Made by a program: the position numbers and the translations under genes. A stretch of 64,000 bases of DNA from Hygrophila difformis (taxonomy: Eukaryota > Streptophyta > Magnoliopsida > Lamiales > Acanthaceae): the NCBI GenBank assembly GCA_030278955.1, contig JAOANR010000003.1, positions 28,349,227 to 28,413,226 of the forward strand. Reading direction: 5' to 3'. Positions 1,850 to 54,431 of this stretch are shown here, piece by piece. Position 1 is the first letter of the stretch, and the number at the start of each line of letters is the position of its first letter. The notes under the pieces are model-generated. The model did not search any database, had not been told where the DNA came from, and saw only the letters and a list, made by a program, of their open reading frames with translations.

Positions 1850-2510
1850 CTCTGTAACACCCCGGTTTTTTGTCACCCAGGTCGGGGTGTCACCGCCACA
1901 CCTCCCTAGCAAGACACGGTTTCTCCGAGCTTGCTAAAGAGATGCAAGGCTAGGGTTTTTCAGAATTTAAAACATTCAAACAGCCCATTCATATATAATT
2001 TAAATATAATGTCATTACAGTTGCAGCGGAAAATAATATCTACGTATATATAATGCAGCGGAATTTAAATATAGGGCCAACATGGCCAAACCACGGGTTA
2101 AACATGCCCGTTCATGCAAGATCTAGTCTAATACAAAAATTCAAAATAATATACCATCCCAAACTTCCCATGTATGCATATGACGATGCATAATTCTCAA
2201 CTCTGAAAGAAAAAGAAATAAAAATGGTTTGGTCAGCACTACGTGCTGAGTAAGTTAGCACAAACATGATTAAGGGGTTTCAAAGCCGTTATTTAGATTT
2301 TGAGAAAACATGTACACAACACCACATCATTTAACTTATTTATCTAACAATAATTAAATGGCATAATTTAAAAGATACAGATTTCATAAGATCATAAATA
2401 TAACTTGTAAAGTAATGTAACGGTAGGACATAATTTAAAAGCATAATCTAAAAGGAACAATTTTCGAATCTTCTAGTTTCACATCTCATGTCTCATGTTT
2501 CAAGTTTATA

Positions 2511-9238: not shown

Positions 9239-9312
9239 TTGCTGCTCTCCCGCACTTCATTTCCCTGAAATCAATTCTTTCAGAAACTTAGCGTAAGTGG
9301 GCATTTTAGCAA

Positions 9313-34974: not shown

Positions 34975-35107
34975 GCAATGTCTCGAGTACGAGCCTTTGT
35001 GTATGCATGAGTCTGCTTTGGGAAAGACAACCATTCAATGCCCGACAGATCCTCGAGAGATTAGTCATGGGTTTGATTTGGGAAAACCCTGTAGATGCCA
35101 AAAAAAT
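34975..35107 (+). mobile_element. SINE-like insertion of a second family
   Basis: A 133-bp unit starting GCAATGTCTCGAGTACGAGCC and ending in an A-run, flanked by AACTAGTTGTAGTTGTTAA (34956-34974) and the same 19-mer with one mismatch (35108-35126). Its start resembles the possible SINE at 23462-23600. It appears 5'-truncated. Confidence 0.6.
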
Positions 35108-35126
35108 AACTAGTTGTAGTTATTAA

Positions 35127-36121
35127 TATATTATTACATTAATTAGTTTAATAATTATCAAATAAATGTGTTTAATAAATGATTATTTCATTAAAAATCT
35201 AATTTCTCTTAAGTCTTAATTAATATAATCAGAACTTAAATATTGTTGAACAAAAATATAACGATTACTAAAATTTATTCAGTTTAATAAAGATTTATGC
35301 GACATAACTGTCGCCGTTGTTAGCTGAGATTTGGGTTGGCTCTCAGGGATAGATGCGAGCTACATCATATATTAAGATTAAAGAATCAAATTGCGGATGT
35401 CTTGGCTTGGTGGGTAAAGCAGGAATGCATAATTCTATATAATATGAGCGTTACCACATGATGAGATCAATGTATTCCCGGAGAAAGATGCGGATGGCAA
35501 TGTTTACACTCAGGGATAGAGACATATTGGTTTTGCTTTTGGCATTCAGTTTTTATTTATTTATTTTTCTTTGCTCGGCCTCTTAGTTGTGTTAAAAAGA
35601 AAAAACATTTATGTTTACAAATGTTTTAACATTAGCCCAGTATTTTTGTTCAAATTGGTCTGCAACATTAAATTAAAACCAAAATTATGCCTTTCTTTCT
35701 CTCTCTCTCTCTCTTTCCTTTTTTTTTTCTTTTTTTTTTTTTTAAAGTTCTCCTAATCATCCTGTCAGATAAGCCCCAAAATTTCCTGGACAAGAATAAT
35801 TAGACCTTATATAAATAAAATAAAAATCTAAAAAATAAGGGGAAAAAAAAACAAAGAAAAGAAACTTGGGTATGGAATATAGATGGAGTGCACCCAATGC
35901 CAAAAAATAAAAAGTGTGTGTTTGTGTGTGTAAAGGAGCAGCTTTTGCATCCTTTTAATTTGTGTCTGATAACTTTTTTACAGCTTTTCAACTCTCGCCT
36001 CTTTTTGGATTTAATTAGAGTTGAAATATTTATTTTCCTTTTATTTTCTTGCCCCAATTGGCTTTTTCCATTGGCTGAAAGAAATTAGTATAGATTTTGA
36101 TGTAACAGTACTATGTAATAA
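35127..36121. other. AT-rich intergenic DNA
   Basis: No gene supported. A weak coding-like tract near 35390-35430 (NQIADVLAWWVKQE) resembles the end of a LINE RNase H but is too short to call. A pyrimidine tract with (CT)n lies at 35690-35745. Confidence 0.4.
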
Positions 36122-36130
36122 TTTCTTATT

Positions 36131-36330
36131 GAGGAAATGAATTTTTTAGGCCATTACAAGACACCATTTCCACATTTGGGCCATTATGAAATCAATTTCC
36201 AATTTTAGGCCATTAGAAACCCTCTTTGACCAAATTAAGGCCATTTAGACTATTTTGACTTTTTCAAACTTCAATTAACCCTACCAACTTTTACTTTATT
36301 TCATTTTGACCACAGATTTTAGTTTCTTCA
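36131..36330. repeat. Left terminal inverted repeat of the virus-bearing unit
   Basis: Shared blocks with the inverse of the right end include GGCCATTACAAG, TATTCCAC/TTTCCAC, AATTTCC-AATTTTAGGCCATTA and AAATTAAGGCCAT. By eye about two-thirds of positions match over some 150 bp. It consists largely of repeated GGCCATTA words. Confidence 0.7.
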
Positions 36331-36354
36331 TTATCATTAGTCCAATATCAGCCC

Positions 36355-36640
36355 ATCATGCTTCCGATAATTAAATTAAGCACTAAACTTCATACCTTGG
36401 CTTTGACCGCCTTGCTGCCGGGTTTCCTAAGCTCCGGGATTTTACGGACTTCCTCCAACCACGCAGCCGCGACCGATGGTTCACCGATTCTTGGCTCCTT
36501 CAGCAACAAACAGCACAGTCCTATTTCGTTTCCTACCTTAGGACGTATCAAGATATGAATAAAGGGTTTTAATTATATTATCGGGATATTTGGGATATTT
36601 GGAAGCCTGGATTTTACTGAAGAAATATTAAAAATATTAT
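36355..36640 (-). other. Viral intergenic/leader segment shared with the foldback element
   Basis: This stretch is colinear with the inner arm and loop of the 18-kb foldback element (18430-18730). On the viral minus strand it follows the TATA box and would lie in the pregenomic RNA leader. Unlike typical leaders, no large stem-loop is obvious within this segment alone. Confidence 0.7.
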
Positions 36641-36824
36641 TTAAACATCATTTCCCCTATCGGAGAAGACAGACACTTAGTTCCTCATGGAGGATACAAG
36701 ACTCTTGGGGGAATACCCCATACTTTTACAGACTCGAAAGGAAATATGCAGAAAGAGAAATATTACAAATACTTTGAAGAGTTGGGAGGAATTTTCGATG
36801 CCTTCCATCTGCTTCAAACTCCTT

Positions 36825-36832
36825 TATTTATA
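36825..36832 (-). promoter_or_regulatory. TATA box of the pararetroviral main promoter
   Basis: Minus-strand TATAAATA, about 400 nt after the end of the last frame, is the position of the pregenomic RNA promoter in Caulimoviridae. GC-rich CGCGGGCGCC lies just upstream. Confidence 0.65.
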
Positions 36833-37238
36833 GGCGCCCGCGGACTTCAGCCCCGGATTCCAATCTTCCTCTAAATCCTTGTGACGTCACTGCGTTCGTC
36901 ACTTGGCCTTAATTTCCACCGGCTATATTATTATCCTTTTTTTTTTGAATTATTACGTTAGGTGGCCTTTGTCAACTTTCCACCTTCTCTTGTCGGCCAC
37001 TTTCTGCCAGCTATTCTGCCCTTCTTTGTCGGCTTTTAATTATGAGTGTTGCCGACACCTCTCTTTCTTTTACATCCAGCTAATCTTACTTTGGCTTGTG
37101 AAAGTTTTTTGGACGTTTCTTTCCTTTGTCCTGTTCGGGTCCGGATTTTTTCTGGGTTACCCGGATCTTTGTACCGAAGGGGTTTCTCCTGTTCTGCACA
37201 ATATGGGCATATGTGGTTATCCCATTGGCCAACATGCA

Positions 37239-38360
37239 TCATGTTGCATGCCTTTTTTTTCTGGTAGACTCGGTTGCTGGCGACTTGTTTTCCCAGATGA
37301 GTAACCTCTTCTTTTCGAATGAGGTTTCCGCAAACTCTGTGCTTTTCCCTGTTAAAGAATTAACCAGGAACGATCCATTTAAATTATTTGAGAATATTTT
37401 AAACGGATATTTAACCTTTTCCATCTCGGTGAGACAGACCCAGAATCCCCATGCTCGTCGGGTGGAGATTTCATCTTCGCTGATTGAAGATACCAATGGT
37501 GCCTTCTCATCCATAGACTTAACTCTGTTGAAGGCAATCATATCAGGTCTCTGTAATTTAATAAATTGAAAGACCGGATAAGAACCTTTTCCGACTATTT
37601 CTGGTGCCGCTGAAATGAACTTAAGCTCCAGAATATCTCCTCTTTGCAGGTGCGGGTTGTTCTGCCATGATTCGTGCACCGCACTACTTATCCATCCCGG
37701 AAGTTTTTCGATTTCCGGAAACCCTGGTGATGTAGTATGAACAGATGCTAATGCTCCAAAGTCATACCACTTTCGAACCTCTTCTGGTTTCGATCCTTCG
37801 AGCATCCATACCCTGTTGTATCTCCCGGATGTCTCGATTACTGTTTTGCTAGGGTTAATTCCCTTTTTGGAAACCAGTTGTTCCCATTTTCCTTGGTAGT
37901 CCAGCCAGGCATTAGATAGGACCTTCTCGTCTGAATCAACCTTAGAGGTGCCTGTCATTGGCCTAAGGTTAATTTCTTCCTCTTTCACCCCAGAGGCAGT
38001 GGGTTGACTTGAGCTTTCGGAAATGTGACTTTCCTCTTGCTCAACATTTTTGTCGGTATCCGACAATGGTTCCTTTGAAGCAGTGCTTGAATCTGCTTCT
38101 TCATATGTGACCACTTTAGCTTTTTGGGCACATTTCTCTTTGTTTACCAGGGAAGCTGACGCTTTCCTGATTGGCTCTAATACTGTTTCCCATAGTGCTA
38201 TCATTGCTATATGGGAGGTTCGTATATCATCGCTCTGTTGTATTTGGCCAGCTGCTCGTGCATTGATCTCGAGCTGTCCAAAATGCTTCGATAGCTCCTC
38301 TAGGTTTTCTCTGAGGTGCCTGAATCTCGTAATGATGGAATCAGCTTCAAATGCTTCCAT
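37239..38360 (-). CDS. Pararetroviral P6/TAV-position protein
   Basis: 373 residues, intact, overlapping the end of the polymerase frame by 14 nt. It occupies the place of the transactivator/viroplasmin of caulimoviruses and relatives, which reinitiates translation on polycistronic RNA and forms inclusion bodies. The N-terminal 90 residues are helical and coiled-coil-like (FRHLRENLEELSKHFGQLE). A charged linker follows, then a globular part from about residue 150 with W/G/Y-rich tracts (NAWLDYQGKWEQLV, SGRYNRVWMLEG, KLPGWISSAVHESWQ). The tail is basic. The assignment rests on position and general character; I do not see a diagnostic motif, so another accessory role is possible. Confidence 0.6.
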   Translation of the reverse strand: MEAFEADSIITRFRHLRENLEELSKHFGQLEINARAAGQIQQSDDIRTSHIAMIALWETVLEPIRKASASLVNKEKCAQKAKVVTYEEADSSTASKEPLSDTDKNVEQEESHISESSSQPTASGVKEEEINLRPMTGTSKVDSDEKVLSNAWLDYQGKWEQLVSKKGINPSKTVIETSGRYNRVWMLEGSKPEEVRKWYDFGALASVHTTSPGFPEIEKLPGWISSAVHESWQNNPHLQRGDILELKFISAAPEIVGKGSYPVFQFIKLQRPDMIAFNRVKSMDEKAPLVSSISEDEISTRRAWGFWVCLTEMEKVKYPFKIFSNNLNGSFLVNSLTGKSTEFAETSFEKKRLLIWENKSPATESTRKKRHAT

Positions 38361-40407
38361 CTCTCATTAGGAAATCTGTAAGAACATTTTCATGAGATTT
38401 TATAACATCAATATCATAAGTATAATATTGACATTCAGCTTGCCATCTGATAATACGAGCTTTTTCAATTTTTGATTCAAGTATATTTTTTAAAAAAGCC
38501 CTAACATTAGTATTATCAACTTTTAATACAAATTTCTTTGCAAGTAAGAATAAAGACCATTTTTTAAATATTTTCCATACTGCAAAAAATTCCTTTTCGT
38601 TAATATGCCAAAGTTTGGCTTGTTGTTCAGTGAACAACCCTCCTGTGTATCTACAAGGTTCTTGACCCGTAGTTGTTTTTTTCATGAGCACTCCTGCCCA
38701 TCGAAAATCATTGGCGTCTGTATAGACTACCAGCTCATCCTCATCCTGAGGTATCGCGAGTTTTGGCAAGCTATTGCAGACTTGCTTTAGTTCACGAATT
38801 CTCTTAGTATGGATTTCTTCCCATTTCCATCTAGAGCTTTCAGTCTCTTTCAGGAGTGGTCTAAAATCCTTTCTATATTTTGCAAGGTCTTTAATAAACA
38901 TACCCACAAAATTTACAACTCCTAAGAAACTCTGAAGTTGTTTCTTGTCTTTTAATATATCAGGAAAATTGCGGATTTTCTCCACAATGTGTTCCTGTAA
39001 CTCTATTCCTGCTTCATCAATTTGAACTCCTAAGAATTCAATTTTGTTAGCAGCGATAGTGGCCTTTTTCTCAGAGAGAACTAGACCTTCCCTGTGACAT
39101 GCATCAGAAAATATTTCAAGATGTTTAATATGCTCTTTAATATTTCGAGATGCAATCAGAATGTCATCTATGTAGACGAACATAAACTCTAGATAATCCT
39201 TAAATAGATTATCCATCTTTCTTTGGAATATCTGAGGGGCATTAGAAAGCCCCATTGGCATAACATTCCAAATATATTGCCCTTGTGGGGTGGAGAATGC
39301 TGTGAATTTCTTCGACTCATTCTCCATCTTAATCTGATAGAAACCAGATTTGCAATCAAATTTAGAAAACACTTTAGCACCTTTGATGCAATCAATTAAG
39401 TGTTCTCTACTCGGAATGTAATAACCATCAAACTGTATTATTTTGTTAATACCTTGATAGTTTATTACCAACCTGGGTTTACCTCTCTTTATTTCACCGT
39501 GGTTTCTTACCAAGAATCCAGGGCTACTATAAGCTGAGACTCCAGGCTCGATGAGTTTAAGATCAATATTCTCCTTGATAATTTGCTGCATATCTTTCTT
39601 ATCCTGCATATTCATTAAGATGGGTTTGTATCGAACATACTCATATTTATATTGTTCTTTTACCTGTAGAGTAGCTTCGATCTTGTTTTTATCCCACCAT
39701 GCCAGAGGATCCTCGTTTAAGTTTCTCTGGATAAGTCTTTTGACAGTTTCGAGGGACAATTTAGTTTCCCCATCAATGTCTAGTGAAGTTATATTTAATG
39801 ACTTCATTTCCTGCATTGCTTCTTTGAGGTTTATAATTTCCTCAATAGAAGCTTCATCAAATCCTTGCTGTCTAAAAGACAACAAAGCCTTACCAAACTT
39901 TCTTTTATCCTGCATTTTTGGATGGGTTAGTTTGGCATCATTATCACCACGTTTGCTGCGAAATAATATAGGCATTAACCTGTTGAATGCCTTTTCCCTG
40001 CGCAACACCTGTATCTCATTTCCACAACTTGTGGTAAATATTAACAAATTTCTTTTGTTATCTTGAACATATTTTGTAAAGGATTGTATAAAATTGTTTC
40101 CTAACAAAATATCCGCTCCTGTGTCATGAAAGTAAATAGGAGGCGTTTTTACCTTATACCAAGGTGTACCAAATGCTCCTCCAATCATGATATTCGCTTG
40201 TCGAATACCCTTATTTAGTACTAAGATTTTTTGGGAAAAATCTCTTCCTGCAATAATGGGTAATGATTCCATAGCTTCGCTAGGGAAAACTCCTGGTTTT
40301 GCCGTGCAAATACCTGATCCTGAATCAATATAAGCTGCGAAATATTCTGACTTATATTCTTCATATATTATCCCTACTGAGATATAAATGGAGAATGGAC
40401 TTGTCAT
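38347..40407 (-). CDS. Pararetroviral polymerase (aspartic protease, RT, RNase H)
   Basis: 686 residues, no stops. The start overlaps the movement-protein stop in an ATGA arrangement. A protease site AYIDSGSG is at residues 25-32 and its partner ILLGNNF at 100-106. RT follows from about 270 to 470: FSKFDCKSGFYQI, the MPMGLSNAPQIFQ tract and catalytic YIDD at 412-415. RNase H spans about 555-680, with D564 (YTDAN), E606 and D631 in place. There is no integrase, as expected. The enzyme makes virion DNA from pregenomic RNA. All catalytic residues are present. Confidence 0.9.
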   Translation of the reverse strand: MTSPFSIYISVGIIYEEYKSEYFAAYIDSGSGICTAKPGVFPSEAMESLPIIAGRDFSQKILVLNKGIRQANIMIGGAFGTPWYKVKTPPIYFHDTGADILLGNNFIQSFTKYVQDNKRNLLIFTTSCGNEIQVLRREKAFNRLMPILFRSKRGDNDAKLTHPKMQDKRKFGKALLSFRQQGFDEASIEEIINLKEAMQEMKSLNITSLDIDGETKLSLETVKRLIQRNLNEDPLAWWDKNKIEATLQVKEQYKYEYVRYKPILMNMQDKKDMQQIIKENIDLKLIEPGVSAYSSPGFLVRNHGEIKRGKPRLVINYQGINKIIQFDGYYIPSREHLIDCIKGAKVFSKFDCKSGFYQIKMENESKKFTAFSTPQGQYIWNVMPMGLSNAPQIFQRKMDNLFKDYLEFMFVYIDDILIASRNIKEHIKHLEIFSDACHREGLVLSEKKATIAANKIEFLGVQIDEAGIELQEHIVEKIRNFPDILKDKKQLQSFLGVVNFVGMFIKDLAKYRKDFRPLLKETESSRWKWEEIHTKRIRELKQVCNSLPKLAIPQDEDELVVYTDANDFRWAGVLMKKTTTGQEPCRYTGGLFTEQQAKLWHINEKEFFAVWKIFKKWSLFLLAKKFVLKVDNTNVRAFLKNILESKIEKARIIRWQAECQYYTYDIDVIKSHENVLTDFLMRDGSI

Positions 40408-41651
40408 TTAATTCTGATGGTGTGACCCTTCAGATTAAATTCTATACCATTATCCTTTCTTATCCATGGTTTATGATTTTCGAGAAAACTTAATCCCAAA
40501 ATCATAACCCCATTGTCTTTTCCGGCGGTGCCTAAAACTCTGATCTCGTGTCCTGCAATTTCAATTGTTCCTTCATAGGTTCCAATTGATGGCTGCTGCA
40601 AGTAGTATAAGTCATCACATGGAAAACGGTTAATCTTTTCAGTGATGTCGAATATTACTCGTATTTCTTTCCATCCTTCAGGGCATTTTATCTTTATATT
40701 ATCTACCCTAATGGATTGAGGAGTTAGATCTTTGATGAACTCCTTCCCTTTATATGCCATAATTCTGTCTTCCGAAAAAGACATACGGCTTGCGTACTCA
40801 ATTCTAGCACTCGTTGATCTGTCTAGAATTGGATGATCTCTTATTTGTATGTCTACTCCTCCTAACCTTGGAATCTGGGTAGGATTTGGAGTCATGACTT
40901 TAGCAAATTCCTTGAAAATTCTAGGAATTTCTATATATTCTTTCCTGAGAAATAAGTCAGAATGATGACTATTGGAAAGTGCATAAGAGATTCTATAAGT
41001 TATAGAATATGGCCTGTTCCCTTCTTTCATCAGATCTTTTCTTTTAAAATCCTGATGAAGGGTTAGAACTCTACTAAAATCTTGGTCAGCTAAGTTATAG
41101 GAAATTCTGGGATGTATGTCAAACATTAACTTCCCAGCATATAAATTTCCTACCATAGTTCCAAGAAGACCATCTCTAAGGTTATTGATTCTTCTATCAG
41201 TGACTGATAGATGCAATTCAGAATCAATGCCTTCTTTGAAGGTTGCCTTAATTACTACTTCAATGGCTCCTATGTGGATCCATTTCATAGTAATGGCGAT
41301 TTCCTCCTTCATTCTGCTTAATTCCTCAAGAATTTCTTCTTTAGGAATTAATTGCATATCCATAACATTACAAGTAAGTTCCATAGGAATTGCAAACTCA
41401 CCTGCACTTACCTTGTAGATGATGTTATGTCTTCTCTGGTTGAGTCCCATCTGGTTAAGAACTCGTCCAATCCCGCCAATTCTGAATCCGTCATATGGGC
41501 TGAGGTTGGAATCTTGTCGCATTATTCTTTCCATGGTTCGATTCGAGATCGTCATCCTTGAAAAGAATCCAGACAGGTTTTCAGTGGTCTGAATCCTGTC
41601 TTCTTCAGTCAGACTCGGTTGAAGATCCATCTGAATATGAGTCCGAGTCAC
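40404..41651 (-). CDS. Pararetroviral movement protein (30K superfamily)
   Basis: 415 residues, intact; it overlaps the coat-protein frame by 47 nt. The central part (about residues 75-250: YKVSAGEFAIPMELTCNVMD, then KWIHIGAIEVVIKATF) matches the beta-rich core of 30K-type movement proteins of Caulimoviridae, which widen plasmodesmata. An N-terminal extension of about 60 residues is polar. The last 80 residues end in a tract (MILGLSFLENHKPWI) that resembles the C-terminal half of a retropepsin, which is odd for a movement protein. Confidence 0.75.
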   Translation of the reverse strand: MTRTHIQMDLQPSLTEEDRIQTTENLSGFFSRMTISNRTMERIMRQDSNLSPYDGFRIGGIGRVLNQMGLNQRRHNIIYKVSAGEFAIPMELTCNVMDMQLIPKEEILEELSRMKEEIAITMKWIHIGAIEVVIKATFKEGIDSELHLSVTDRRINNLRDGLLGTMVGNLYAGKLMFDIHPRISYNLADQDFSRVLTLHQDFKRKDLMKEGNRPYSITYRISYALSNSHHSDLFLRKEYIEIPRIFKEFAKVMTPNPTQIPRLGGVDIQIRDHPILDRSTSARIEYASRMSFSEDRIMAYKGKEFIKDLTPQSIRVDNIKIKCPEGWKEIRVIFDITEKINRFPCDDLYYLQQPSIGTYEGTIEIAGHEIRVLGTAGKDNGVMILGLSFLENHKPWIRKDNGIEFNLKGHTIRIK

Positions 41652-42984
41652 TTCTTAATTCTTCCTCGTAGATGCTTTCATCCGAGGGGATGTCCTCAAA
41701 CTGATAGACTGGTACCAGCTTTCCATGGTAGACTGCTTCAACGATATCCTCCGTGGCTTCGTACATTCGTACCTCACGATTCTGAGGGCAATCGGGTGAG
41801 ATATGACCTCTGGCTCCACACTTCCAACAGTTGCAGTCCTTGAAACTTTCGTTGGCTCGGGTATGGGCTCGTCTGAATGTTCTCTTGGACGTCGTTCTCC
41901 CCGCGCTCCTTGCTGCTGAGCTAGTTGAACCTTGGGATGAACTCTTCGTCGTTCCTGTTCTTTGTCCAGTTTTGTATGATCTGGCCTTGCTCTTGGACCA
42001 CCATGCTCTTCTTCTTCGGAATGGAGGTCTTCTGAAACTCCTACTGTATGAGCCCCGACTCTTCTTCTTTTTCCTCTTTTCTCCTGATTCTCCTATAATT
42101 GTTGGAAAATTGTTATTTTCACAGCAAAGAGGAGTTCTTTTTATTTTACCTCTTAGTCTCTTGATGTTCTTTTGGGCTGCTGCCTGTTGACACCATTCAC
42201 TGAGCTTATCCTTTAAGAAGGACATTCTTCGAGCTATTGAGTCCACTGTACCAGGGGGTACTGTGTACGATTGGATCAACATTTCTCTCCATGGGATGCA
42301 GATCTTTGCAAGGAACATGGGACATGCTATTTCAGCTGTCATTTCACTCCGAAAATAGTATTTACGAAACCAGTAGATATATTCGTCTACTGCGCAAATA
42401 CTTCTTAACTCCATACCCAACAGTGCTTGGGTATAGACTTTGATTTTTTCTGTTCTCTGTTCTTCAAAATAACCATCTCCTACAAAATGGGTTTTGAATA
42501 AGAGGCCAAACCTTTCGCAGATTGTGCTTTTGGATTCTCCTTCGAGTATTTGCTCCTTTAAAGCAGCCGTGGAGTTTTTCCAGCCCAGCTTTGCCGATCC
42601 TTCGAGACTCAGCTCTATTAATCTGACAAAGTTTTCTTTATCGAGTTCCAGGGTGGTTGCTGCAATCTTCATTGAAGCTACCCATTCATTGATCAGGTCT
42701 TCGATGTTTCGGAAGTCGATAACGTCGAGATTTAGTGTTATGCCATATGGATTTAATGGTTGTAACATCGTCTTGGCCCACGGTGTGGATTCTGGTGCTC
42801 TACTTGGGTTCCGTCCTGGGTTTCGTCTTGCATTAAGATGCACCTCAGGATACCTGTTCATGTAGAAGTCTGTACTTTCTCTCATTGGAACATTAGGCGG
42901 TCCATCGTGGGTCACGTTGGATCCTGATCCTTCCGCATAACCCAATTGAAGGACTTCATTGGGTTTTACATTAACCAGATCCAT
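41605..42984 (-). CDS. Pararetroviral coat protein with zinc knuckle
   Basis: 459 residues, intact. The middle is a capsid-type helical region (about residues 70-280: NIEDLINEWVASMKIAATTL, GSAKLGWKNSTAAL and others). A strongly basic region with R/K runs (about 305-380) suggests nuclear import and nucleic-acid binding. The single knuckle CWKCGARGHISPDC is at residues 386-399 (CX2CX4HX4C) and the tail is acidic, rich in S, D and E. This order is that of caulimovirid coat proteins. It lies 65 nt after the preceding small frame. Confidence 0.85.
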   Translation of the reverse strand: MDLVNVKPNEVLQLGYAEGSGSNVTHDGPPNVPMRESTDFYMNRYPEVHLNARRNPGRNPSRAPESTPWAKTMLQPLNPYGITLNLDVIDFRNIEDLINEWVASMKIAATTLELDKENFVRLIELSLEGSAKLGWKNSTAALKEQILEGESKSTICERFGLLFKTHFVGDGYFEEQRTEKIKVYTQALLGMELRSICAVDEYIYWFRKYYFRSEMTAEIACPMFLAKICIPWREMLIQSYTVPPGTVDSIARRMSFLKDKLSEWCQQAAAQKNIKRLRGKIKRTPLCCENNNFPTIIGESGEKRKKKKSRGSYSRSFRRPPFRRRRAWWSKSKARSYKTGQRTGTTKSSSQGSTSSAARSAGRTTSKRTFRRAHTRANESFKDCNCWKCGARGHISPDCPQNREVRMYEATEDIVEAVYHGKLVPVYQFEDIPSDESIYEEELRSDSDSYSDGSSTESD

Positions 42985-43049
42985 AATCCCAAGTTGGGAA
43001 AATGATTATGCTAATTCTTGTAGATCTGATAGATCTGCCCTGGAAACAC

Positions 43050-43472
43050 TCATTCGACTGTTTTCAGGAGATCGATCATAAGCTCTTCTTGTGATTTCTG
43101 CTTTGGAACCATAGTTGCTTTACCCTTTTGATGTAAAGCTTGTACTGGTCCGAATGCATCTCTAATATTGGCTTGGTTATTCTTGGAAGATCCAGGAATA
43201 TCCTTCTGCCTTTTCTTGATATCCGAAATGTCAAATTTTAGATTCAAAATTTCTTTCTTTAGATCTTGAAATACTTTCAAGATCTCATCTGTTGTCTGAT
43301 TCAAGTTATCTATTTTCCCAGGTATAATTAATACCCGGTTACCAAAATCTTGAATCGTCTTTTGGATTTCTCTTAAGTCTTTTGATAACTTAGAGCTATC
43401 CGGATCAATTTCTTTCCAGTCCGTTCCTCTCATTTTTAGGAAAGAAACTGATTTTGATAATATCTTGTCCAT
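43050..43472 (-). CDS. Small coiled-coil protein, virion-associated-protein position
   Basis: 140 residues, intact; the first frame after the primer site. Residues about 25-100 form a heptad-like coiled coil (LSKDLREIQKTIQDF, IDNLNQTTDEILKVFQDLKK). The C-terminus is basic (KGKATMVPKQKSQEE). Position and architecture resemble the virion-associated or P2-type proteins of several caulimovirid genera, which link capsids to movement or vector transmission. No direct motif proves this. Confidence 0.6.
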   Translation of the reverse strand: MDKILSKSVSFLKMRGTDWKEIDPDSSKLSKDLREIQKTIQDFGNRVLIIPGKIDNLNQTTDEILKVFQDLKKEILNLKFDISDIKKRQKDIPGSSKNNQANIRDAFGPVQALHQKGKATMVPKQKSQEELMIDLLKTVE

Positions 43473-43640
43473 GGGACAAGTTCAAGAAATTTCTTTGGAA
43501 TTTTCTATTTTTTATTTCCAAAATTTGGAAATAACTTGTGGGTTTCAAATTAATTGAATCCATTAAATAATTAAATCTTCTCCATTAAGAAATAAAATAT
43601 TATAAATAATATAATTAATATGTTCTTCAATAAAACCTAG

Positions 43641-43652
43641 GCTCTGATACCA
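43641..43652 (-). other. Pararetroviral tRNA-iMet primer-binding site
   Basis: Minus-strand TGGTATCAGAGC lies 169 nt before the first frame. It marks the conventional start of the circular genome. Confidence 0.85.
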
Positions 43653-43675
43653 ATTTTCAAGCGCATTGGGTGTCA

Positions 43676-43683
43676 TTTATATA
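43676..43683 (-). promoter_or_regulatory. TATA-like box immediately upstream of the viral primer site
   Basis: Minus-strand TATATAAA lies 24 nt before the primer site, between the terminal inverted repeat and the virus. It could give a transcript starting at about the primer site and covering all five frames. Confidence 0.4.
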
Positions 43684-43714
43684 GTGAAAACTTAAGTATA
43701 TTGACAAAGAACTA

Positions 43715-43913
43715 AAGTAAATAAAGTCAAACTTTCTTGGGGTTTTAATGAAAGAAAGGAAAAGTTGTTGGGAATTAATTAATTTTCAAATTGGTCCTTA
43801 TGGCTTAATTTCATTCAACATGTGTTTGTAATGGCCTAATTCTGGAAATTCAACTTATAATAGCTTAAAAGTGGAATAGACTCCTTGTAATGGCCCTTTT
43901 TATTACTTTCCCC
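43715..43913. repeat. Right terminal inverted repeat of the virus-bearing unit
   Basis: This is the inverse partner of 36131-36330. On the minus strand it starts GGGGAAAGTAATAAAAAGGG, then GGCCATTACAAGGAG, and continues with AATTAGGCCATTACA and AATTAAGCCATAAGG. It is followed by the right TSD copy. Confidence 0.7.
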
Positions 43914-43922
43914 TTTCTTATT

Positions 43923-44948
43923 TGTTGCATCACAAAAAAGAAGTATGACAGAAATAAATGAGCATCAATGACGAACGGTCAAGTTTAGGTGCTAAAACGA
44001 GGAGTTAAGCATATACTAATTGTGATGTATTTGAATTTTTTGTGATGATAAGTACAATATCATTTCTTTTTAAATTTTATTTTATATACATGGATGATTA
44101 TAAAATAATTTTTATGTATTATTATATTATACACATGTGGATTATGTGAATGTTTGGGAGTCAGCGGATTCGCGATCAGATAGCAGATTTGGAGAGAGAA
44201 CTGTGAGACAATATGCTCTTCCAATATGCTATATGCTGGTCAGTATGCTGTCATCCAAACAGCCCCTATGTACTTAAACCGGACCGGAAAAACGAGATTT
44301 GAACTCATTCCAATCCAAAAAGGCTCATTCAAAAAAACAAAAAATCCAATCCAGAAAGAATGTCTCTTAATTCAACATCATGGGCCTGTTTGGGAATTAA
44401 CTGTTAGCTGTTAACTGTGAGTAATAATTAGTTAAAATTAGTTGTTTGACAATTTCAAGACTAACCTTTTGCCTAGAATAAGCTAAAATCCAAAATGTTG
44501 CTATCTGCAGCGTTTCAAAAGGAGCTGATTGAACGCTATTTTAAGTTATTTTTATCTTTTTAAATAAACTAATTTTTTTTAATTGTCTCACAAAAAGCAA
44601 ATTCTAGTTTAGCTGTTTTGTCAAATGGGCACATGAAAATCTTAAGAGACAACAAAAGCTAGAAGCTCCTATCATCCAACTCGTATGGCGCAATAAGTTA
44701 TATATAACTTGCACTTAAATTAATAAGTAAAATCTTATGGTTAAAAGTTTAATTGTCCCGATGTATGAAAAAAATTATTTAATTAAATAACAGCACTATT
44801 ATGTAACACTCCGTTAGGCACTCTGTACATTTCAACAGAATATACAGACCAATGCTACAGCTACACCTACCATAAGGGTAGCGCCTTGCCCAAACTTACA
44901 TCAGATGTTAATTGCTACGGCTAAAAGTCGGATAAATGAAAGATATCC
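43923..44948. other. Intergenic DNA
   Basis: No gene. A possible MITE start GGGCCTGTTTGGGAATTAACTG at about 44383 has no matching end. Confidence 0.4.
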
Positions 44949-44953
44949 ATCCA

Positions 44954-45228
44954 TGTGATGAGTCACACCCGTAGGATGATATCTCATGTCGTACGTATTG
45001 GTTTTTAAATGTAAGTAGTCATCACTCAAAATGACTAATCACTCATGTTTTCCCCTATATATATGAGAACTGTTGTACGGGAATAATTACTCCTCAATCA
45101 AGCAATATACACTAGTACTCATTATCTTGCTCTGGTTTTTTTAATTCCATTTCATTACTAGTATATAGTATCATTATACTACACCACTACATAAACATAT
45201 ATAGCTAATAGGTAAATATTATACAACA
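44954..45228 (+). repeat. 5' LTR of the copia element (275 bp)
   Basis: TG...CA ends, TATATATA core promoter at 45056-45063. It differs from the 3' LTR by point changes and two small indels near 44980 and 45026, indicating an insertion of some age. Confidence 0.9.
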
Positions 45229-45402
45229 CGTTATCAGCATGACGTTGTTGGTTCGAGTCTTGTTCAAGTTTTGCTAAAATACCAGTTGGGTTCTGTTCGG
45301 GGTTTGTCGAAATACAAGTTCGTATCGGGGTTATGACGAAAATCTCCAAGTCTAGAAAGAAGTCATCTGAGGTAGTATATTTATACTATTTTCAATATAA
45401 TT

Positions 45403-46481
45403 ATGGCTAATTTGACAAAACAAGAGTTTATGCTGCTGGAAAGATCCGGGAATAATTATTTATCCTGGAGAATGGATGTTGAAATACATCTTGAATCAAT
45501 GGGTCTAGAAAAGATCATTATGAAAGAAAATATGGCCACAGGCCAAGACCGTGCAAAAGCTATGATTTTTCTCCGACATCATCTTGATGAAGGATTAAAA
45601 TTAGAATATTTGACGGTGAAAGATCCTTGTGATCTATGGGAGAATTTGGAAAAACGATATGATCATTTAAAATTGACCAATCTCCCTAGTGCCAGACATG
45701 AGTGGCAGCAATTGAGGTTGCAGGTCTATAAGTCCGTAAATTATTACAATTCAGCCATGTTCAGAATAACTGCACAATTGAGATTATGTGGCGAAAAAAT
45801 AACTGAAAGTGATATGTTGGAGAAGACATTCTCAACATTTCATGCCACAAATATATTGTTGCAGCAACAATACAGAGAAAAAGGTTTCAAAGAACATTCT
45901 GAGCTTATTACTTGTTTGTTACTAGCTGAGAAAAACAATCATTTGTTGATGAAAAATCATGAGTCCCGACCAACAGGAATTGCACCATATCCTGAGATGA
46001 ATTTCACAGAATCATCTAATCGTGGTCGTGGACGTGGCCAAATGGGAACTCGTGGACGTGGCCGAGGCCATGGTCGTGGTCATGGTCGTGGGTATGGCCG
46101 TGAAAGAAACAATATTTATATAAAGCCAGAACCATATCCATGCGACCAAAATGGTGAAAGAAAGCAAAGCAATAGCCATCAAAACAGTGGCCCGAAAAAT
46201 TATGCCGATAAAGGCAAAAGAAAGTTGAAGAAAAATGCCACCGTTGTGGTATGGAAGGGCACTGGGCACAAACCTGTCGTACAACAAGTCATTGGGTAAA
46301 GCTTTATCAAGACTCATTGAAAGAAAAGAATAAGCAGGTTGAAACAAACCTTGCGGAACAAAATGATGACGACATTGCAACCACAAGTGATGCTATTATG
46401 AATGCAACTGAGGCCATAAACGATGATTTGCTCATAGAGCCAGCCTTTGGTGTTGCAGATTTCTTTAATGATACTGTATAA
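45403..46481 (+). pseudogene. Copia Gag, frameshifted at the zinc knuckle
   Basis: The first frame (45403-46299, 298 residues) has the copia Gag pattern (NYLSWRMDVEIHLESMGLEK, a DLWENLEKRYDHL tract, LRLCGEKITESDMLEKTFSTF) and an arginine-glycine-rich region. The zinc knuckle is split. A frameshift near 46240 moves the frame so that CHRCGMEGHWAQTC would be completed, and the rest (to 46481) runs in another phase, ending with an acidic tail. Gag coats the element RNA. Confidence 0.85.
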
Positions 46482-46559: not shown

Positions 46560-49500
46560 AAAAATGCCAGCACAATGGGATTGCAAATTGGTGATAATGA
46601 AATATGTCTTATAGACAGTACTTCTACGCACACGATATTGAATGACAAAAGATACTTTTCCTATCTGGAAATGGGAGATAGAAGCATCACCACTATAAGT
46701 GGAAGTGCAAATATAATAGAAGGCTCTGGCATGACCAACCTTTAGCTCCCTAATGGGACAAGATTGATTGTGGAAAATGCACTTTTCTCTCCCAAGTCTC
46801 GAAGAAATTTGTTGAGTTTTAAAGGTATTCGAGAAAATGGATATCATATCGAGACTTTGATAGCAAAAGGTAATGAACACCTGCTGATTACAAATACCAT
46901 TTCTGGTATGAAACAAGTATTGGAAAAGTTATCATGTTTATCCTCTGGATTGTATTATAAAAGGATAAACGATGTTGAAAATTATCACCTGACAGACCAT
47001 AGGTCTATTGTTCCCAATGAATATATGATTTGACATGATCGCCTTAGACATCCTGGATGTACCATGATGAGGCGGATCCTTACAAATTCCCATGGTCATT
47101 TATTAAAGGGACAAAAAATATAGCACCACGATGATTATATATATATTGCTTGCTCCCAAGGGAAACTCATTATAAAGCATTCATCAGAAAAGGTGGGAAA
47201 TGAATCCCCTAATTTTCTTGAAAGATTCAGGGTGATATATATGGACCTATAGATCCACCTTGTGGGCCATTCAGATATTTTATGGTGTTGCTTGATGCTT
47301 CAACCAGATGGTCACACGTGACATTATTATCATCGCGCAACCATGCATTCGCGAAATTGCTAGCTCAAATCATCAGATTATGAGCACAGTTACCAGATTA
47401 TACAATTAAAAATATCTGTTTGGATAATGCTGGTGAATATTCATCCTGGACATTTGATGAATATTGTATGTCGATAGGCATAGCCATCGAACATCCTGTA
47501 GCCCATGTGCATACATAAAATGGACTAGCTGAATCATTTATTAAACGATTGCAGTTGATCGCTAGACCATTATTAATGAAGTCTGAGTTACCAGTTTCAG
47601 TTTGGGGACATGTTATATTGCATGCAGCAATGTTGGTGTGATTAAGACCGATAAATTATCATATATACTCCCCATTACAATTAACATTTGGGCATGAACC
47701 CAATGTATCCCATTTGAGAATATTTGGTTGCGCAGTATATGTCCCAATAGCACCACCTTTGCGCACCAAAATGGGATCCCAACGAAGATTGGGAATATAT
47801 GTCGGGTATGAATCACCCTCGATAATTTGATATCTTGAACCATTAACAGGGGATTCATTTACACCAAAATTTGTTGATTGTCATTTTGACGAATCACATT
47901 TCCCAATAATAGGGGGAGGAAAGGATCAACCGAAAAAGAATATAAATTGGAAAATCCCAATGGATTTCCTTGATCCTCGTACAAAAGACTATGAAATTGA
48001 AGTACAAAGAATTGTACATTTGCAATAAATTGCAAATCAATTGCGGATGCATTATGTGACTCTAAAAGGGTTACTAAATCTCATATACCCGCAGAAAATG
48101 TTCCAGTCAAAATTGATGTTCCAAAGGAACACATTATAAGTGCTAAAGATGAGTCGGATCAACGCTTAAAGTGTGGTAGACCTCTCGGTTACAAAGATAA
48201 AAATCCTCGAAAGAAAAGAGGATTGAATACTGATAATGAAGGAACACAAGTTCCCAAAAGTGACAAAACTGAGCCCTGCAGAGACTTGACTCTTGAAGAG
48301 CAAAATCATCAAAATGATGAGATATCTATAAATTTTGTCACTAATAAAAATGTTTGGAATCGAGAAGAAACATCTATTGATATTGCATTCTCATACAATG
48401 TAGCACTTGAAGTTATGAAAGATGATGAGGATTATGAACCAAATTCAGTTGATGAATGTCCGCAAAGGCAAGATTGACCAAAATGGATAGAAGCAATCCA
48501 ATCAGAATTAGATTCCCTGGCTAAGCGAAATGTGTTTGGACCAATTGTCAAAACGCCAGAAAATATAAAGCCGGTTGGATACAGATGGGTTTTTGTACGA
48601 AAAAGAAATGAAGAAAATGAAATTGTGAGATACAAAGCGAGATTAGACGCCCAAGGGTTCTCACAGAGACCGGGATTTGACTATGATGAAACTTATTCCT
48701 CATTAATGGATGGAATTACATTCAGATATCTTATCTGTTTCGCAGTACATGAAAAGCTTGAAATACGACTCACAGATGTCGCTACTGCTTATTTATATGG
48801 AACTTAAGATACTGATATCTATATGAAAGTTCCAGAAGGGTTCAAAATGCCAGAGGCGTATAAAGCAAACCCAAAAGAAATGTATTCCATCAAATTACAA
48901 AGATCCCTATATGGACTCAAACAATCTGGAAGAATGTGGTATAACCGATTAAGCGAAAACTTAATTCAAGAGGGTTATATAAATGACCCAATATGTCCAT
49001 GCATCTTTATACAGAAAAATGGGTCAAGATTTATTATCATTGCAGTATATGTTGATGATATCAATCTAGTTGGATCCCGTGATGAGATTCAAATTGTTGT
49101 TGACTATTTCAAAAGAGAATTCGAAATCAAAGATTTCGGAAAAACCAAAAGGTGTCTTCGTTTACAAATTGAATATTTGAATGATGGAATTCTTGTCCAC
49201 CAAAAGGCTTATACCCAAAAGGTATTGAAGCGATTCTATATGGACAAAGCACATCCATTGAGTAATCCAATGGTCGTAAGGTCACTTGATCCTAAAAAGG
49301 ATCCATTTAGACCAAAAGAGGAAGATGAAAAAATATTTGGGCCACAGGTCCCATATTTAAGTGTCATTGGAGCACTGATGTATCTCGTAAACTGCACTAG
49401 ACCAGACATATCATTTGCAGTAAATCTGTTGGCGAGATTTAGTTCATCTCCAACCCTACGGCATTGGAAAGGAATAAAACACCTTTCGTTATCTCAAAGG

Positions 49501-50040
49501 GACGATTGATATGGGTTTATTTTATTCATGCAATTCTCAACCTGAATTAATCGGCTATGCCGATGCTGGGTATTTATCAGACCCACACAAAGCTAAGTCA
49601 CAGACTGGCTATTTAATTACGTGTGGTGGTACTGCAATATCGTGGCTCCACGATATTGCAGTACCACCTCATCGAATCATGCTTAAATTATAGCTATACA
49701 TGAAGCTAGTCGAGAATGTATTTGGGTCAAATCTATGACCAACTACATACGAAAGAATTGTGGTTTATCGTCCGAATATAAAGACCCTCCAATTATTTTA
49801 TATGAGGATAATGCGGCTTGTATAGCGCAATTGAAAGAGTTATATTAAAGGAGATAGAACGAAACATATTTTACCAAAATTTTTCTTTTCTCATGATTTG
49901 CAGAAAAATAGTGAAATAGATGTGCAACAAATCCGTTCAACGGATAATCTTTCAAATTTGTTTACCAAGACACTACCAACAGCAACATTCGAGAAGTTGG
50001 TGAAAAGCATCGGGATGCGCCAATTGAAGAATCTCAACTG
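46560..50040 (+). pseudogene. Copia Pol, multiply broken
   Basis: The protease region starts near 46574 with an altered site (IDSTSTHTI, where D-S/T-G is usual). A stop lies at 46744-46746. Integrase (about 47030-48470) is riddled with stops and shifts. RT is best kept at 48478-49509: KPVGYRWVFVRKRNEENEIV, one TAA near 48806, SLYGLKQSGRMWYNRL and catalytic YVDD near 49049. RNase H starts at about 49511 (LIGYADAGYLSDPHKAKSQTG) and is disrupted by a local inverted duplication at 49625-49668. The element cannot be autonomous. Confidence 0.9.
49625..49668. repeat. Perfect 21-bp inverted repeat in the RNase H region
   Basis: GGTGGTACTGCAATATCGTGG is followed by CT and its exact reverse complement. 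The first arm is normal RNase H sequence; the second replaces the sequence expected there. Confidence 0.9.
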
Positions 50041-51639: not shown

Positions 51640-52440
51640 CATGCACATGAACTTTTAACAAGCAGGAGAGAGAGAAAACACTCTAGACTGACGGAGCCCG
51701 CACACAAGGAAAACAGATTGCGTCGCAGTCCAACTTCGAGCGACGCAATCTAAGGATCTCGAAGCCAACATCTTTTACGACGCAACCCTCCAGTTCGGAT
51801 CGAAGACCCCATACGTCGCAATCCTTCCGTGCGTCGCAATACCCCTATTAAGACGCAAACACCCGTCAGACTGTCACGACGCGCACCAGGAGCAAGAGAC
51901 CTATGTCGCAATCCCCTCCACTCGCGTCGTAATCCATGCATCACGACACAAGGTATCATGATGTAGCCGAGCCAATACGACGTCCTTAACGCATGAGTGA
52001 TCTACGTCACAACTCGAGGATTACGACGCGACGCCATTCCAGATTAGGGTTTTGTATCGTTAGCTAGCTTGTTTAATTCTCGGTTATGATGGTTGGAACA
52101 CTTGTATTTTCGGAAACCTATATATATGGCCTCCCTTACATTATATCATTTACCTTTGAATGAATATATTATTGAACACATTTGGAGAGTGCAAATATCA
52201 TTTGTTTGAAGGTCACCTCACGGATTCAACCTTGTTGATTGGATTCCTTTCAAGCTTGGGATGTGCTTGATCGAATAGCCACCTTGAGAATATCGATTGA
52301 GGGAATAGTCGAACACTACCGTATTAGTCGATTCCAAATTTGAGTATTCAACTAGGTAATCCCCTTGTCCATTTATTTTGTTTTTCAGTTTTGGTCTCCA
52401 CCTTTGAAACTTTTGACAATTGCCCACTATATGAGTATTT
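51640..52440 (+). repeat. LTR-like fragment with palindromic words and TATA box
   Basis: A plus-strand TATATATA at 52119-52126, followed by GAATGAATATATTATTGAACAC, looks like an LTR core promoter. Upstream, 51715-51960 carries repeated TGCGTCGCA/GCGACGCAA words, including the hairpin TTGCGTCGC...GCGACGCAA at 51718-51749. Neither LTR end nor an internal region was identified. It may be a truncated solo LTR. Confidence 0.45.
52119..52126 (+). promoter_or_regulatory. TATA box of the LTR-like fragment
   Basis: CTATATATATGG about 160 nt after the last palindromic word. Confidence 0.45.
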
Positions 52441-52550
52441 TCTGAAAAATAATAATCTCGGTTTAATTTTATTTAATGAAACCAAATTATGAAGATGGAG
52501 TTGGGATTAGGGATATGTTTATAGGTTGTCACGTTTTTATATACTCATGT

Positions 52551-52641
52551 AGGAAACTGTGGCCTGAAAGCGCACGGTGTTAAAAATTGCAGTAATTTAT
52601 AGTAAGACTGGATCGTTCACTGGAGGATGAGCGATAGAAGC
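52551..52641 (-). repeat. Shared LTR block, second copy
   Basis: Matches 12099-12180: GTAGGAAACTG...CTGAAAGCGCACGGTGTT...TTGCAGTAATTTA...GGATCGTTCACTG...GCGATAGAAGC. Confidence 0.6.
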
Positions 52642-54431
52642 AGGGCCCACATCGTTTACTAAGATTTTCCACTCGGTTACTCGTTTCAAGCTTGAGTTGG
52701 GTTCTAACAACTACTTGACATAATTTAAACTAGATTATGAAAGCAATAATAGTTATACTACAAAGCTGAGTAAAATTATTCTAAAAAGCAATTAAATCTA
52801 TTATAAGAAAGCAATAAGAATTATACTAAGAAAGTGGTTAAAATTATTCTACGAAAGCATGTAAAATTATGCTACACTATCTATAAAGTGAATTTAAATT
52901 ATGACAGAAGAGACAGGAAGGAAATAATAAAAGTTGGACAAGATTTCAGATGAAACAATAATTAAACTTCCATTTTTGCTACACAGATCTTTGTTTGGGA
53001 TAATCTATCAGTTAGCTAACTCTCATGCTTTCTAGACTATGTTCCCTTTAACAGACAAATACTTACAGTCAGAATTTACATGCTCTTAAGACCTCAACAT
53101 CTAAGATACCACATATTAATAGCTGCCCCTGCCGAGGTATGTTATTTCTCCATGGTGGATAAGCAACACCTAACATATCATTAGTTGATATGCCAAGTAC
53201 TCTTATCATCTCCCTTGTCACACCCAAGGTCCAAATTAAATCCCGAACTAATCCATAGCTCTTAAAACTTATATACGGCGGCCAACCTCTAATTCTCCCA
53301 AGTGTCCTCTATAAAGCATTTAAAAGAAAGCGGTAAAGAAAGCATTTAAAAACCTATCACTCGGGAGCTTTAAAAAGTTATCTCATTCCGTTAGTATAAA
53401 AGAGCCTCTGGTCTTGGTGACCAGATGCAGATTTAGAACTCTCCAAATATCAGTAAGCCACAGGGCTTATAACATCTGGTTAGTTATGAGATACAAACTG
53501 AATGGAACAAACATGTGAAGATCTATTCCGAATGTACTCACTCAAGACTCAATTCTAGGCTTTGGTGAGAGAAGATAGTAGTTGAAAGAATACTCAACCC
53601 TATCTCAGAAATTAACCAAGGCCTATATGTTGTTCCTCTAGTATTGTTTACCCCATCTCATCTGAATCCAAGTGGACACTGATTTGATGCAATATCTAAT
53701 ATATGATTTCCAACACACAACAATTTTGAGAAAACAATTGATATTTGAAAATCATTCCCTACACAGGTATTAAACTCTCAATTAATACACAGATTCTTTC
53801 AGTCTAGGTGAGACCTAATCGCTGACTTTGCTTCTAAGTTCTCAAAATCAACCCCCAGTAGAAGATGAATTAGTCATAGCTGTGAAATTATCCCTTACTC
53901 AGATCTGGATTTTATAAAGTGATTTTTGTGAAAAATTATTGTGCAACATCTGATTTAGATCATGACTTCTATGTCCAAGGGGAAGGATCCCCAAAATAAA
54001 TATGACCACAATATCTACATAATAATATCATGCATACATGTATATGAGAAGTAAAATAAAATACCCCAAAATATATGATGAGATTAGCAGAATTTGATAC
54101 ACAAAGATGGATTAGCCTTGAGAAAAGGAGAATTTGGTTAAAAAGAGTGCTAGAAATAACTGGGGTGGTCTGGACTGCAAACATCTGCTATCCAGTTCCC
54201 AATTATTCCAGATGGTATGATTTTTAGACAGTAAGGAACCTTTAATAACAGTGATGGCTATTATCGAAAGTCCTACTATCCATGAATGAGGAAAAACCCA
54301 CATGTTTTCTTACTACAGTATTATTATAACAGTGTTGATCGACACTGTCTAATATTACCATAGCTCGAAATTCAGGTCTGATATTAAGATAAGGAAAAGA
54401 AAACTGTATATAATTAGGAATTGGCTGAGTG

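What the first reader, a model, noticed from the sequence alone, without database searches (positions are those of the whole stretch)
36122..43922. A pararetrovirus bounded by terminal inverted repeats and a 9-bp TSD, like a Mutator transposon
Seen directly: a perfect direct repeat TTTCTTATT flanks the unit, and both ends, read inward, carry similar sequence (G-rich start, AAA..AAAAGG, GGCCATTACAAG, then repeated GGCCATTA words for about 150 bp). Known: Caulimoviridae lack integrase, and endogenous copies normally enter by host end-joining without TIRs or TSDs; 9-bp TSDs with long TIRs typify Mutator-like elements. Inference: the viral genome was captured in, or evolved with, a transposon able to move it. 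A simpler alternative is insertion of viral DNA into an existing MULE MITE.
Basis: partly seen in the sequence, partly recalled or inferred. Interest (0 to 1): 0.93.

Follow-up and report, generated by a model that had tools for sequence, protein, structure and literature searches.

The report
Plant virus carried by a transposon
In this plant genome a family of virus-derived DNA copies (a pararetrovirus, relative of cauliflower mosaic virus) sits between the end repeats of a Mutator-type jumping gene, and most copies examined carry the short target duplications a transposon makes, which suggests a virus that enters chromosomes by using a transposon's ends rather than by accident.

Summary
Confirmed and extended. 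The 7.78-kb unit 36131-43913 has terminal inverted repeats (TIRs) of about 212-220 bp, a perfect 9-bp target duplication (TSD), five open caulimovirid frames and a perfect tRNA-Met site. It is not a one-off. Of 39 further copies in the same 915-Mb genome picked by the left end, 27 showed both ends and 25 of these have exact 9-10-bp TSDs, all different. Of 20 copies picked by RT sequence alone, 20 have a TIR-type left end, and 15 of the 17 with both ends have exact TSDs. Three empty sites were found. The genome also holds a MULE with homologous TIRs, a 9-bp TSD and an intact 881-aa MuDR-type transposase. RT variants shared between copies are mostly synonymous (15:8; neutral about 1:3), so the RT was under selection while the family spread. 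One virus body sits in at least three TIR types, left and right always matched (17 of 17). Best reading: a pararetrovirus with Mutator ends, copied by its RT and inserted by MULE transposase in trans. The hybrid and its TSDs are shown; the circular intermediate and the transposase's action are inferred.

The parts
36122..36130 (.). left 9-bp target site duplication TTTCTTATT
   Evidence: exact match to 43914-43922; other copies read have other TSDs
36131..36347 (+). left terminal inverted repeat (type T1), four GGCCATTA-like words about 30 bp apart
   Evidence: alignment with right TIR; word positions; T1/T2/T3 divergence ends here; homologous to MULE TIRs
36348..36800 (-). viral leader region between a 35S-like promoter and the TIR (virus is on the minus strand)
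   Evidence: read from sequence; 97-100% identical in T1 and T2 copies over the part fetched; limits of the leader are inferred
36822..36890 (-). promoter-like block: TGACGTCA word and TATAAA box
   Evidence: word positions (TGACGT 36884, ACGTCA 36882, TATAAA 36827); likeness to caulimovirid 35S promoters is recalled, no test of function
37239..38360 (-). ORF5, 373 aa, coiled-coil-like N-terminus; place of the transactivator-like gene; a conserved C-terminal piece lies in another frame
   Evidence: transactivator role inferred from gene order
38347..40407 (-). protease - reverse transcriptase - RNase H, 686 aa
   Evidence: PF02160, PF00078, PF17917, PF17919; relatives in Sesamum
40404..41651 (-). 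movement protein, 415 aa
   Evidence: PF01107 E 1.3e-31
41605..42984 (-). coat protein with CCHC zinc knuckle, 459 aa
   Evidence: PF00098 just above its cut-off; PF22909 caulimovirus coat domain below its cut-off
43050..43472 (-). ORF1, 140 aa, coiled-coil-like
   Evidence: only below-cut-off coiled-coil-type Pfam matches
43640..43652 (-). tRNA-Met primer-binding site TGGTATCAGAGCC
   Evidence: 0 mismatches; reading as PBS is recalled knowledge of Caulimoviridae
43676..43683 (-). TATATAAA word between right TIR and PBS; role unknown
43701..43913 (-). right terminal inverted repeat (type T1)
43914..43922 (.). right 9-bp target site duplication TTTCTTATT
52405..52828 (-). repeat in the same window that is the empty-site paralog of another copy (C14:47333401)
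   Evidence: joined flanks of that copy align across the junction, 86% over 429 bp

Best explanation
It is a hybrid mobile element: a caulimovirid genome bounded by Mutator-type (MULE) TIRs. The unit is inserted into chromosomes as one piece by a MULE transposase that the virus is not seen to encode and that MULEs with homologous TIRs in the same genome could supply; insertion makes the 9-10-bp TSDs. Multiplication most likely runs through the virus's own reverse transcription: RNA from the 35S-like promoter, reverse transcription primed by tRNA-Met, and a circular DNA in which the two TIRs lie back to back between leader and primer site, from which the unit can be inserted again. Shown: TIRs, TSDs, many copies, empty sites, a homologous transposase-coding MULE, constraint on the RT while the family spread, matched left/right TIR types on one virus body. 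Inferred: transposase action in trans, the circular TIR-TIR form, and that reverse transcription rather than DNA transposition made most copies.
For: Ends and TSDs: 25 of 27 TIR-selected copies with both ends read (39 fetched) have exact 9-10-bp TSDs, all different; 15 of 17 in the RT-selected set (20 fetched of 39 listed beside the window). Empty-site paralogs for 3 of 35 joined flanks tested against the loci in hand. Counts: 488 ends match the T1 TIR word and 418 the T2-type word (some of these not viral), reversed-pattern controls 0. MULE L177: TIRs 94% alike, TSD TTTTTATTA, 881-aa ORF with PF10551, PF03108 and SWIM; its left TIR aligns with viral TIRs at scores 35-58, shuffles at most 23.5. 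RT constraint: shared variants 15 synonymous, 8 nonsynonymous, 0 stops; context-aware neutral synonymous share 0.26, P about 1e-4; variants in 3 or more copies 10:1, P about 1e-5. Modular ends: T2 TIRs 64-72% (left) and 69-83% (right, one gapped row aside) identical to T1, yet 97-100% identical just inside the TIRs in rows that align there; left and right types matched in 17 of 17.
Against: No TIR-TIR junction (0-30 bp gap, exact 12+12 words) was found in the assembly for T1 or T2, so the circle is not seen; integrated single units would not contain it. L177 TIRs are only 53-72% identical to viral TIRs, so it may not be the real partner. ORF1 gives no selection signal (singletons 12 synonymous, 32 nonsynonymous; shared 3:3). 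Leaving out C>T/G>A, the RT signal is weaker (shared 4:2, P 0.04; all variants 26:44, P 0.03). The RT test used 20 copies picked for high left-TIR identity and for having both ends. In 13 of 39 TIR-selected copies the script found no right end near the expected place (one of these was then read by eye). Two of 17 RT-selected and two of 27 TIR-selected copies with both ends have no exact TSD. The T1/T2 boundary is sharp on the left but graded on the right.
Confidence: 0.65

Rival explanations
1. Passive cargo: a MULE captured the viral genome once (Pack-MULE fashion) and the chimera has since multiplied only by DNA transposition; the viral genes are riders.
For: Ends, TSDs, star-like divergence of copies (88 singletons, 16 shared variants in the 914-bp right end of 23 copies and the window) and a transposase-coding MULE with homologous TIRs all fit; young-looking MULE families are present; ORF1 shows no constraint.
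Against: RT variants shared between copies are mostly synonymous, not expected for a rider; one body with three TIR types, ends matched in 17 of 17, would need repeated capture at about the same two breakpoints.
Confidence: 0.25
2. Viral DNA was joined by host end-joining into an existing MULE MITE at this one locus.
For: End-joining is the usual account for endogenous caulimovirids (review PMC10377300, passages seen).
Against: The whole unit recurs at many sites with different TSDs and 20 of 20 RT genes fetched from between the ends are 98-99% identical to the window's.
Confidence: 0.02
3. The end repeats are the viral leader stem, opened at its loop, and the direct repeats come from end-joining.
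For: Caulimovirid leaders form long hairpins (recalled), and in a circle the two TIRs would lie side by side upstream of the PBS.
Against: TIRs are homologous to those of a transposase-coding MULE and a 1.5-kb non-autonomous MULE; ends are exact with 9-10-bp TSDs. The leader outside the TIRs does not fold better than shuffles (z -0.80). An exapted double role is not excluded.
Confidence: 0.03
4. Integration by LTR-retrotransposon integrase acting on viral DNA.
For: Proposed for badnaviruses in banana (review passages); gypsy-type and copia-type pieces lie in the window.
Against: TSDs are 9-10 bp and ends are MULE-type TIRs; integrase TSDs are 4-6 bp (recalled).
Confidence: 0.02

Closest known systems
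Teratorn (piggyBac-herpesvirus fusion of teleost fish; PMC10175614, abstract and passages seen)
   Same: A virus genome bounded by cut-and-paste transposon ends, with TSDs, multiplied in the host genome; the review calls it the first fusion of a cut-and-paste transposon with a DNA virus.
   Different: Different virus (reverse-transcribing, 7.8 kb against 180 kb) and different transposon superfamily; no transposase recognised inside the unit; the RT shows constraint; kingdom differs.
Pack-MULEs / non-autonomous Mutator-like elements (PMC3310237, abstract and passages seen)
   Same: Long TIRs, 9-11-bp TSD, foreign sequence between TIRs, even a tandem double TIR in one copy (C2:50602656).
   Different: Cargo is a virus with its own replication genes, not a host gene fragment; one cargo is shared by several TIR types.
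Endogenous caulimovirids such as florendoviruses, solendoviruses and wendoviruses (passages of PMC10377300, PMC4241990 and PMC9794742; sections 10 and 11 of the last)
   Same: CP, MP, PR-RT-RH genes, tRNA-Met site; [quoted passage not shown] recent high-copy amplification is reported in pepper and others (PMC9794742).
   Different: Those are described as passively integrated, often fragmented, tandem or near (TA)n; here single units with fixed ends and TSDs. No second protease found, unlike wendoviruses.
L177, a 6.3-kb MULE in the same genome
   Same: Homologous TIRs with the same GGCCAT-N-ACAA words, 9-bp TSD.
   Different: Codes for an 881-aa MuDR-type transposase; no viral genes seen.

Membership tests
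Mutator-like element (MULE) | 9-11-bp TSD (PMC3310237) | tested here: met
   25 of 27 and 15 of 17 copies with both ends have exact 9-10-bp TSDs
Mutator-like element (MULE) | Long TIRs, about 100-500 bp | tested here: met
   about 212-220 bp, though left and right are only about two thirds alike
Mutator-like element (MULE) | TIRs homologous to those of a MULE with transposase | tested here: met
   L177 left TIR, scores 35-58 against shuffle maxima up to 23.5
Mutator-like element (MULE) | Encodes mudrA-type transposase (autonomous members) | tested here: not met
   No transposase Pfam in the five viral frames at E 0.1; so at most a non-autonomous member
Pack-MULE | Carries host gene fragments | tested here: not met
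   The three frames recognised by Pfam are viral; ORF5 relatives are mostly hypothetical proteins of Sesamum
Caulimoviridae | Movement protein, coat protein with zinc knuckle, PR-RT-RNase H without integrase | tested here: met
Caulimoviridae | tRNA-Met primer-binding site | tested here: met
   43640-43652, 0 mismatches
Caulimoviridae | Circular dsDNA genome in virions | not testable with these tools
   only integrated copies were seen
Wendovirus (PMC9794742) | Second aspartic protease in the MP frame | tested here: not met
   MP frame hits PF01107 only, at E up to 0.1
Passively integrated caulimovirid | No fixed ends, no TSD, often tandem or rearranged | tested here: not met
   no head-to-tail TIR junctions of the exact words searched
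LTR retrotransposon | LTRs and integrase | tested here: not met
   inverted, not direct, end repeats; no integrase Pfam in the five frames
Teratorn-like virus-transposon fusion | Virus genome moved as one unit by cut-and-paste transposon ends | tested here: inconclusive
   unit, ends and TSDs shown; excision or transposase action not shown

The most novel reading that the evidence does not exclude
A new class of mobile element that joins class I and class II: a pararetrovirus that multiplies by reverse transcription as a circle and enters chromosomes through Mutator TIRs cut by a transposase borrowed from resident MULEs. The two TIRs lie side by side in the circle, so both ends can be exchanged at once, which explains one virus body with several matched TIR pairs.
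Probability: 0.55. Interest if true: 0.97.

Novelty: new variant of a known kind. Interest (0 to 1): 0.93.

Why it matters
How plant pararetroviruses enter and fill genomes without an integrase is an open question: the review seen here calls the mechanism speculative (PMC10377300), and a survey that reports 951 identical RT copies in pepper only lists several proposed ways of amplification (PMC9794742). This family offers one with exact ends, TSDs and a candidate transposase, and it can be tested. It would be a reverse-transcribing counterpart of Teratorn, and it suggests rechecking other high-copy endogenous caulimovirids for TIRs and TSDs, which a survey by RT domain alone would not show.

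Tried and rejected
IMG/VR gave no relatives of the RT or CP. Rfam has nothing up to E 0.1 in 35000-45500. A captured host exon in the leader (open frame 36393-36572) was considered; open stretches that long occur about 4 per kb (both strands, six frames) in two other parts of this window, so it was dropped. The leader fold is no better than shuffles. A fold search of the ORF5 model (mean pLDDT 62.3) could not be run. The pattern had a wrong spacer (my error) and gave 0; corrected. The notebook entry holds a provisional tally (24 of 27, 26 of 28) that is wrong; the recount from the output is 23 of 26 by script, 25 of 27 after reading two right ends by eye. C5:46840829 and C5:46853451 looked like a tandem from coordinates; by the ends the gap is about 1.6 kb. 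The window's own site has no empty paralog among the matches.
Full report
1. Observation. The unit is real. TTTCTTATT occurs only at 36122-36130 and 43914-43922. The ends are inverted repeats: 36149-36350 pairs with 43702-43895 (score 68; best of 2,000 shuffles 32; best of 1,981 random window pairs 41), the outermost 12 bases match in 9 of 12, and GGCCATTA-like words stand at positions 19, 49, 78 and 109 of both.

2. Contents. On the minus strand lie a 140-aa frame, a coat protein with CCHC knuckle, a movement protein, PR-RT-RNase H and a 373-aa frame, a perfect tRNA-Met site at 43640-43652 and a promoter-like block at 36822-36890 (likeness to 35S promoters recalled). The RT's closest relatives are mostly Sesamum proteins (best 77% over 97% of the query, up to 88% over shorter stretches; 856 hits among 7,994 scored, 120 listed). 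The order CP-MP-RT is that of wendoviruses (PMC9794742, sections 10 and 11 read, passages), but no second protease was found.

3. Same unit elsewhere. The left TIR has 40 scored full-length matches at 98-100% in the own genome, the window among them, of 834 first-look candidates. I fetched stretches at both expected ends of all 39 others. The left terminus is present in 39 of 39, as it must be since they were chosen by it; the right end was found by script in 26, with exact 9-10-bp TSDs in 23 (20 of 9 bp, 3 of 10 bp). Two more were read by eye: C2:50602656 (one of the 26, without a TSD in the script) has a tandem double right TIR and TSD GGTATATAA, and C2:47612251 has a deletion inside the right TIR and TSD TTTATCCAA. 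That makes 25 of 27; the other two match 8 of 9 (C15:37710357) and 7 of 9 (C3:46377177). All 25 TSDs differ. In 12 of 39 no right end was read; C3:38263896 is interrupted inside the right TIR, the others were not followed. Stretches of 280-936 bp at the right end are 96-99% identical to the window in 28 of 39.

4. A sample chosen without the TIR. A 401-bp RT piece has 40 listed matches, the window among them, all 100%, of 1,132 candidates. I fetched the ends of 20 of the other 39. 20 of 20 have a TIR-type left end: 6 of the window's type T1, 13 of a second type T2, 1 of a third type T3. Both ends were read in 17; exact TSDs in 15. C12:9123033 has none; C9:45643616 has 8 bp exact at an offset (9 of 11 by eye).

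5. Counts and spacing. An exact T1 TIR word occurs 488 times (257 + 231), a T2-type word 418 times (222 + 196), reversed patterns 0. Of the 100 listed T1 rows, 27 form convergent pairs within 30 kb, 19 at 7.6-7.8 kb, each one left and one right end. Head-to-tail TIR junctions of exact 12-base words with 0-30 bp between were not found for T1 or T2.

6. Empty sites. Of 35 joined flanks with TSD compared with the loci in hand, three align across the junction to repeats without the insert: C14:47333401 to window 52405-52828 (86% over 429 bp; in the wider alignment a gap lies to the left of the junction), C1:797094 to window 1955-2397 (77% over 448 bp; the TSD itself is poorly kept in the paralog), C11:4564557 to eight loci (best 85% over 224 bp). 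The window's own site matched only its own two flanks.

7. The transposon side. The T2-type word also turned up convergent pairs of other spacing. L177 (6.3 kb, C3) has TIRs 94% alike, TSD TTTTTATTA and an intact 881-aa frame with MULE, DBD_Tnp_Mut and SWIM domains; L178 (1.5 kb) has TSD TATATATTA and no frame over 98 aa. Viral TIRs align with their left TIRs at scores 30-60; the highest of 1,000 shuffles per pair is 18.5-26. The transposase has one intact and one stop-bearing near-identical copy and dozens of relatives, mostly at 66-84% over long stretches (52 of 3,320 candidates scored). I did not show that it acts on the virus; other MULE transposases are abundant (2,395 candidates for PF10551, 150 scored).

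8. Dating and selection. In 23 copies and the window the 914-bp right end differs by 1.15% on average, 88 variants private and 16 shared (copies with under 850 aligned bp left out): a young, star-like spread, in a sample biased to well-kept TIRs. With a recalled plant rate near 7e-9 per site and year this is under a million years; take it as rough. The RT gene of 20 copies (chosen among those with both ends) plus the window is 98.5-99% identical; shared variants are 15 synonymous, 8 nonsynonymous, 0 stops; private ones 47, 66 (65 in the recount), 5 stops; 6 of 21 have an in-frame stop by substitution, frameshifts not counted. A context-aware neutral synonymous share is 0.26; P is 1e-4 for shared, 1e-5 for variants in three or more copies (10:1), 2e-4 for private ones. 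Without C>T and G>A, shared are 4:2 (P 0.04) and all are 26:44 (P 0.03). ORF1 shows no constraint. The RT result means RT function mattered while the family spread.

9. One body, several ends. In the RT-selected set, T2 copies differ from T1 inside the TIRs (64-72% left; 69-83% right, one gapped row aside) but are 97-100% identical just inside them where the fetched piece aligns; T3's left TIR is 60-71%, then 93-100%. The left boundary is sharp, near 36347; the right one is graded and ends near 43684. Left and right types match in 17 of 17 copies with both ends (15 of these also by exact seed). T1 and T2 differ at the same words in both ends. In a circle the two TIRs are neighbours, so one exchange would replace both; selection for matched ends by a transposase would do the same. 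Both are inference.

10. Literature. Reviews describe caulimovirid integration as passive or by retrotransposon machinery (PMC10377300 passages; PMC4241990 passages). Searches in open-access PMC listed no paper whose title or abstract start links a caulimovirid with MULE ends; I did not open most of those listed. PMC10741241, which holds both words, does not link them in the passages seen. The main text of PMC13308828 has no 'inverted repeat', 'target site' or 'Mutator'. Subscription papers were not searched. The closest precedent is Teratorn.

11. Verdict. The hybrid unit with MULE-type insertion is shown (about 0.95). Reverse transcription as the main way of multiplication is the best inference (about 0.6).

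Noticed in passing
37239-38360 and just downstream (-): ORF5 is shorter than several of its best relatives (430-439 aa; others are of similar length) and a conserved C-terminal piece is readable in another frame past the stop: this copy has a frame break there.
   Followed up: partly
C2:50602656 right end (L074): Tandem double right TIR with the TSD after the outer one, as known for some MULEs.
   Followed up: partly
own genome: A young-looking MULE transposase family: dozens of copies with the same Pfam score and a 353-aa open frame; TIRs not determined.
   Followed up: no
C3:41412347/41413790, C3:41707962/41709401, C3:50270067/50271364, C1:70019275/70020788, C3:44980808/44988909: Convergent pairs of the T2-type TIR word at 1.3-1.5 kb and 8.1 kb: probable non-viral MULEs; only the first was read (L178).
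   Followed up: partly
43676-43683 (-): TATATAAA word about 25 bp upstream of the tRNA-Met site, next to the right TIR; could be a second promoter. It is kept in the four T2 copies shown.
   Followed up: no
P0115: A 645-aa RT at 49% identity stands for 133 member sequences: perhaps another high-copy family, source not named.
   Followed up: no
5567-11360 (-); 45403-46299 and 48823-49509 (+): A gypsy-type element and copia-type pieces elsewhere in the window.
   Followed up: no
21134-21610 (+): BIRD-IDD zinc-finger gene piece.
   Followed up: no
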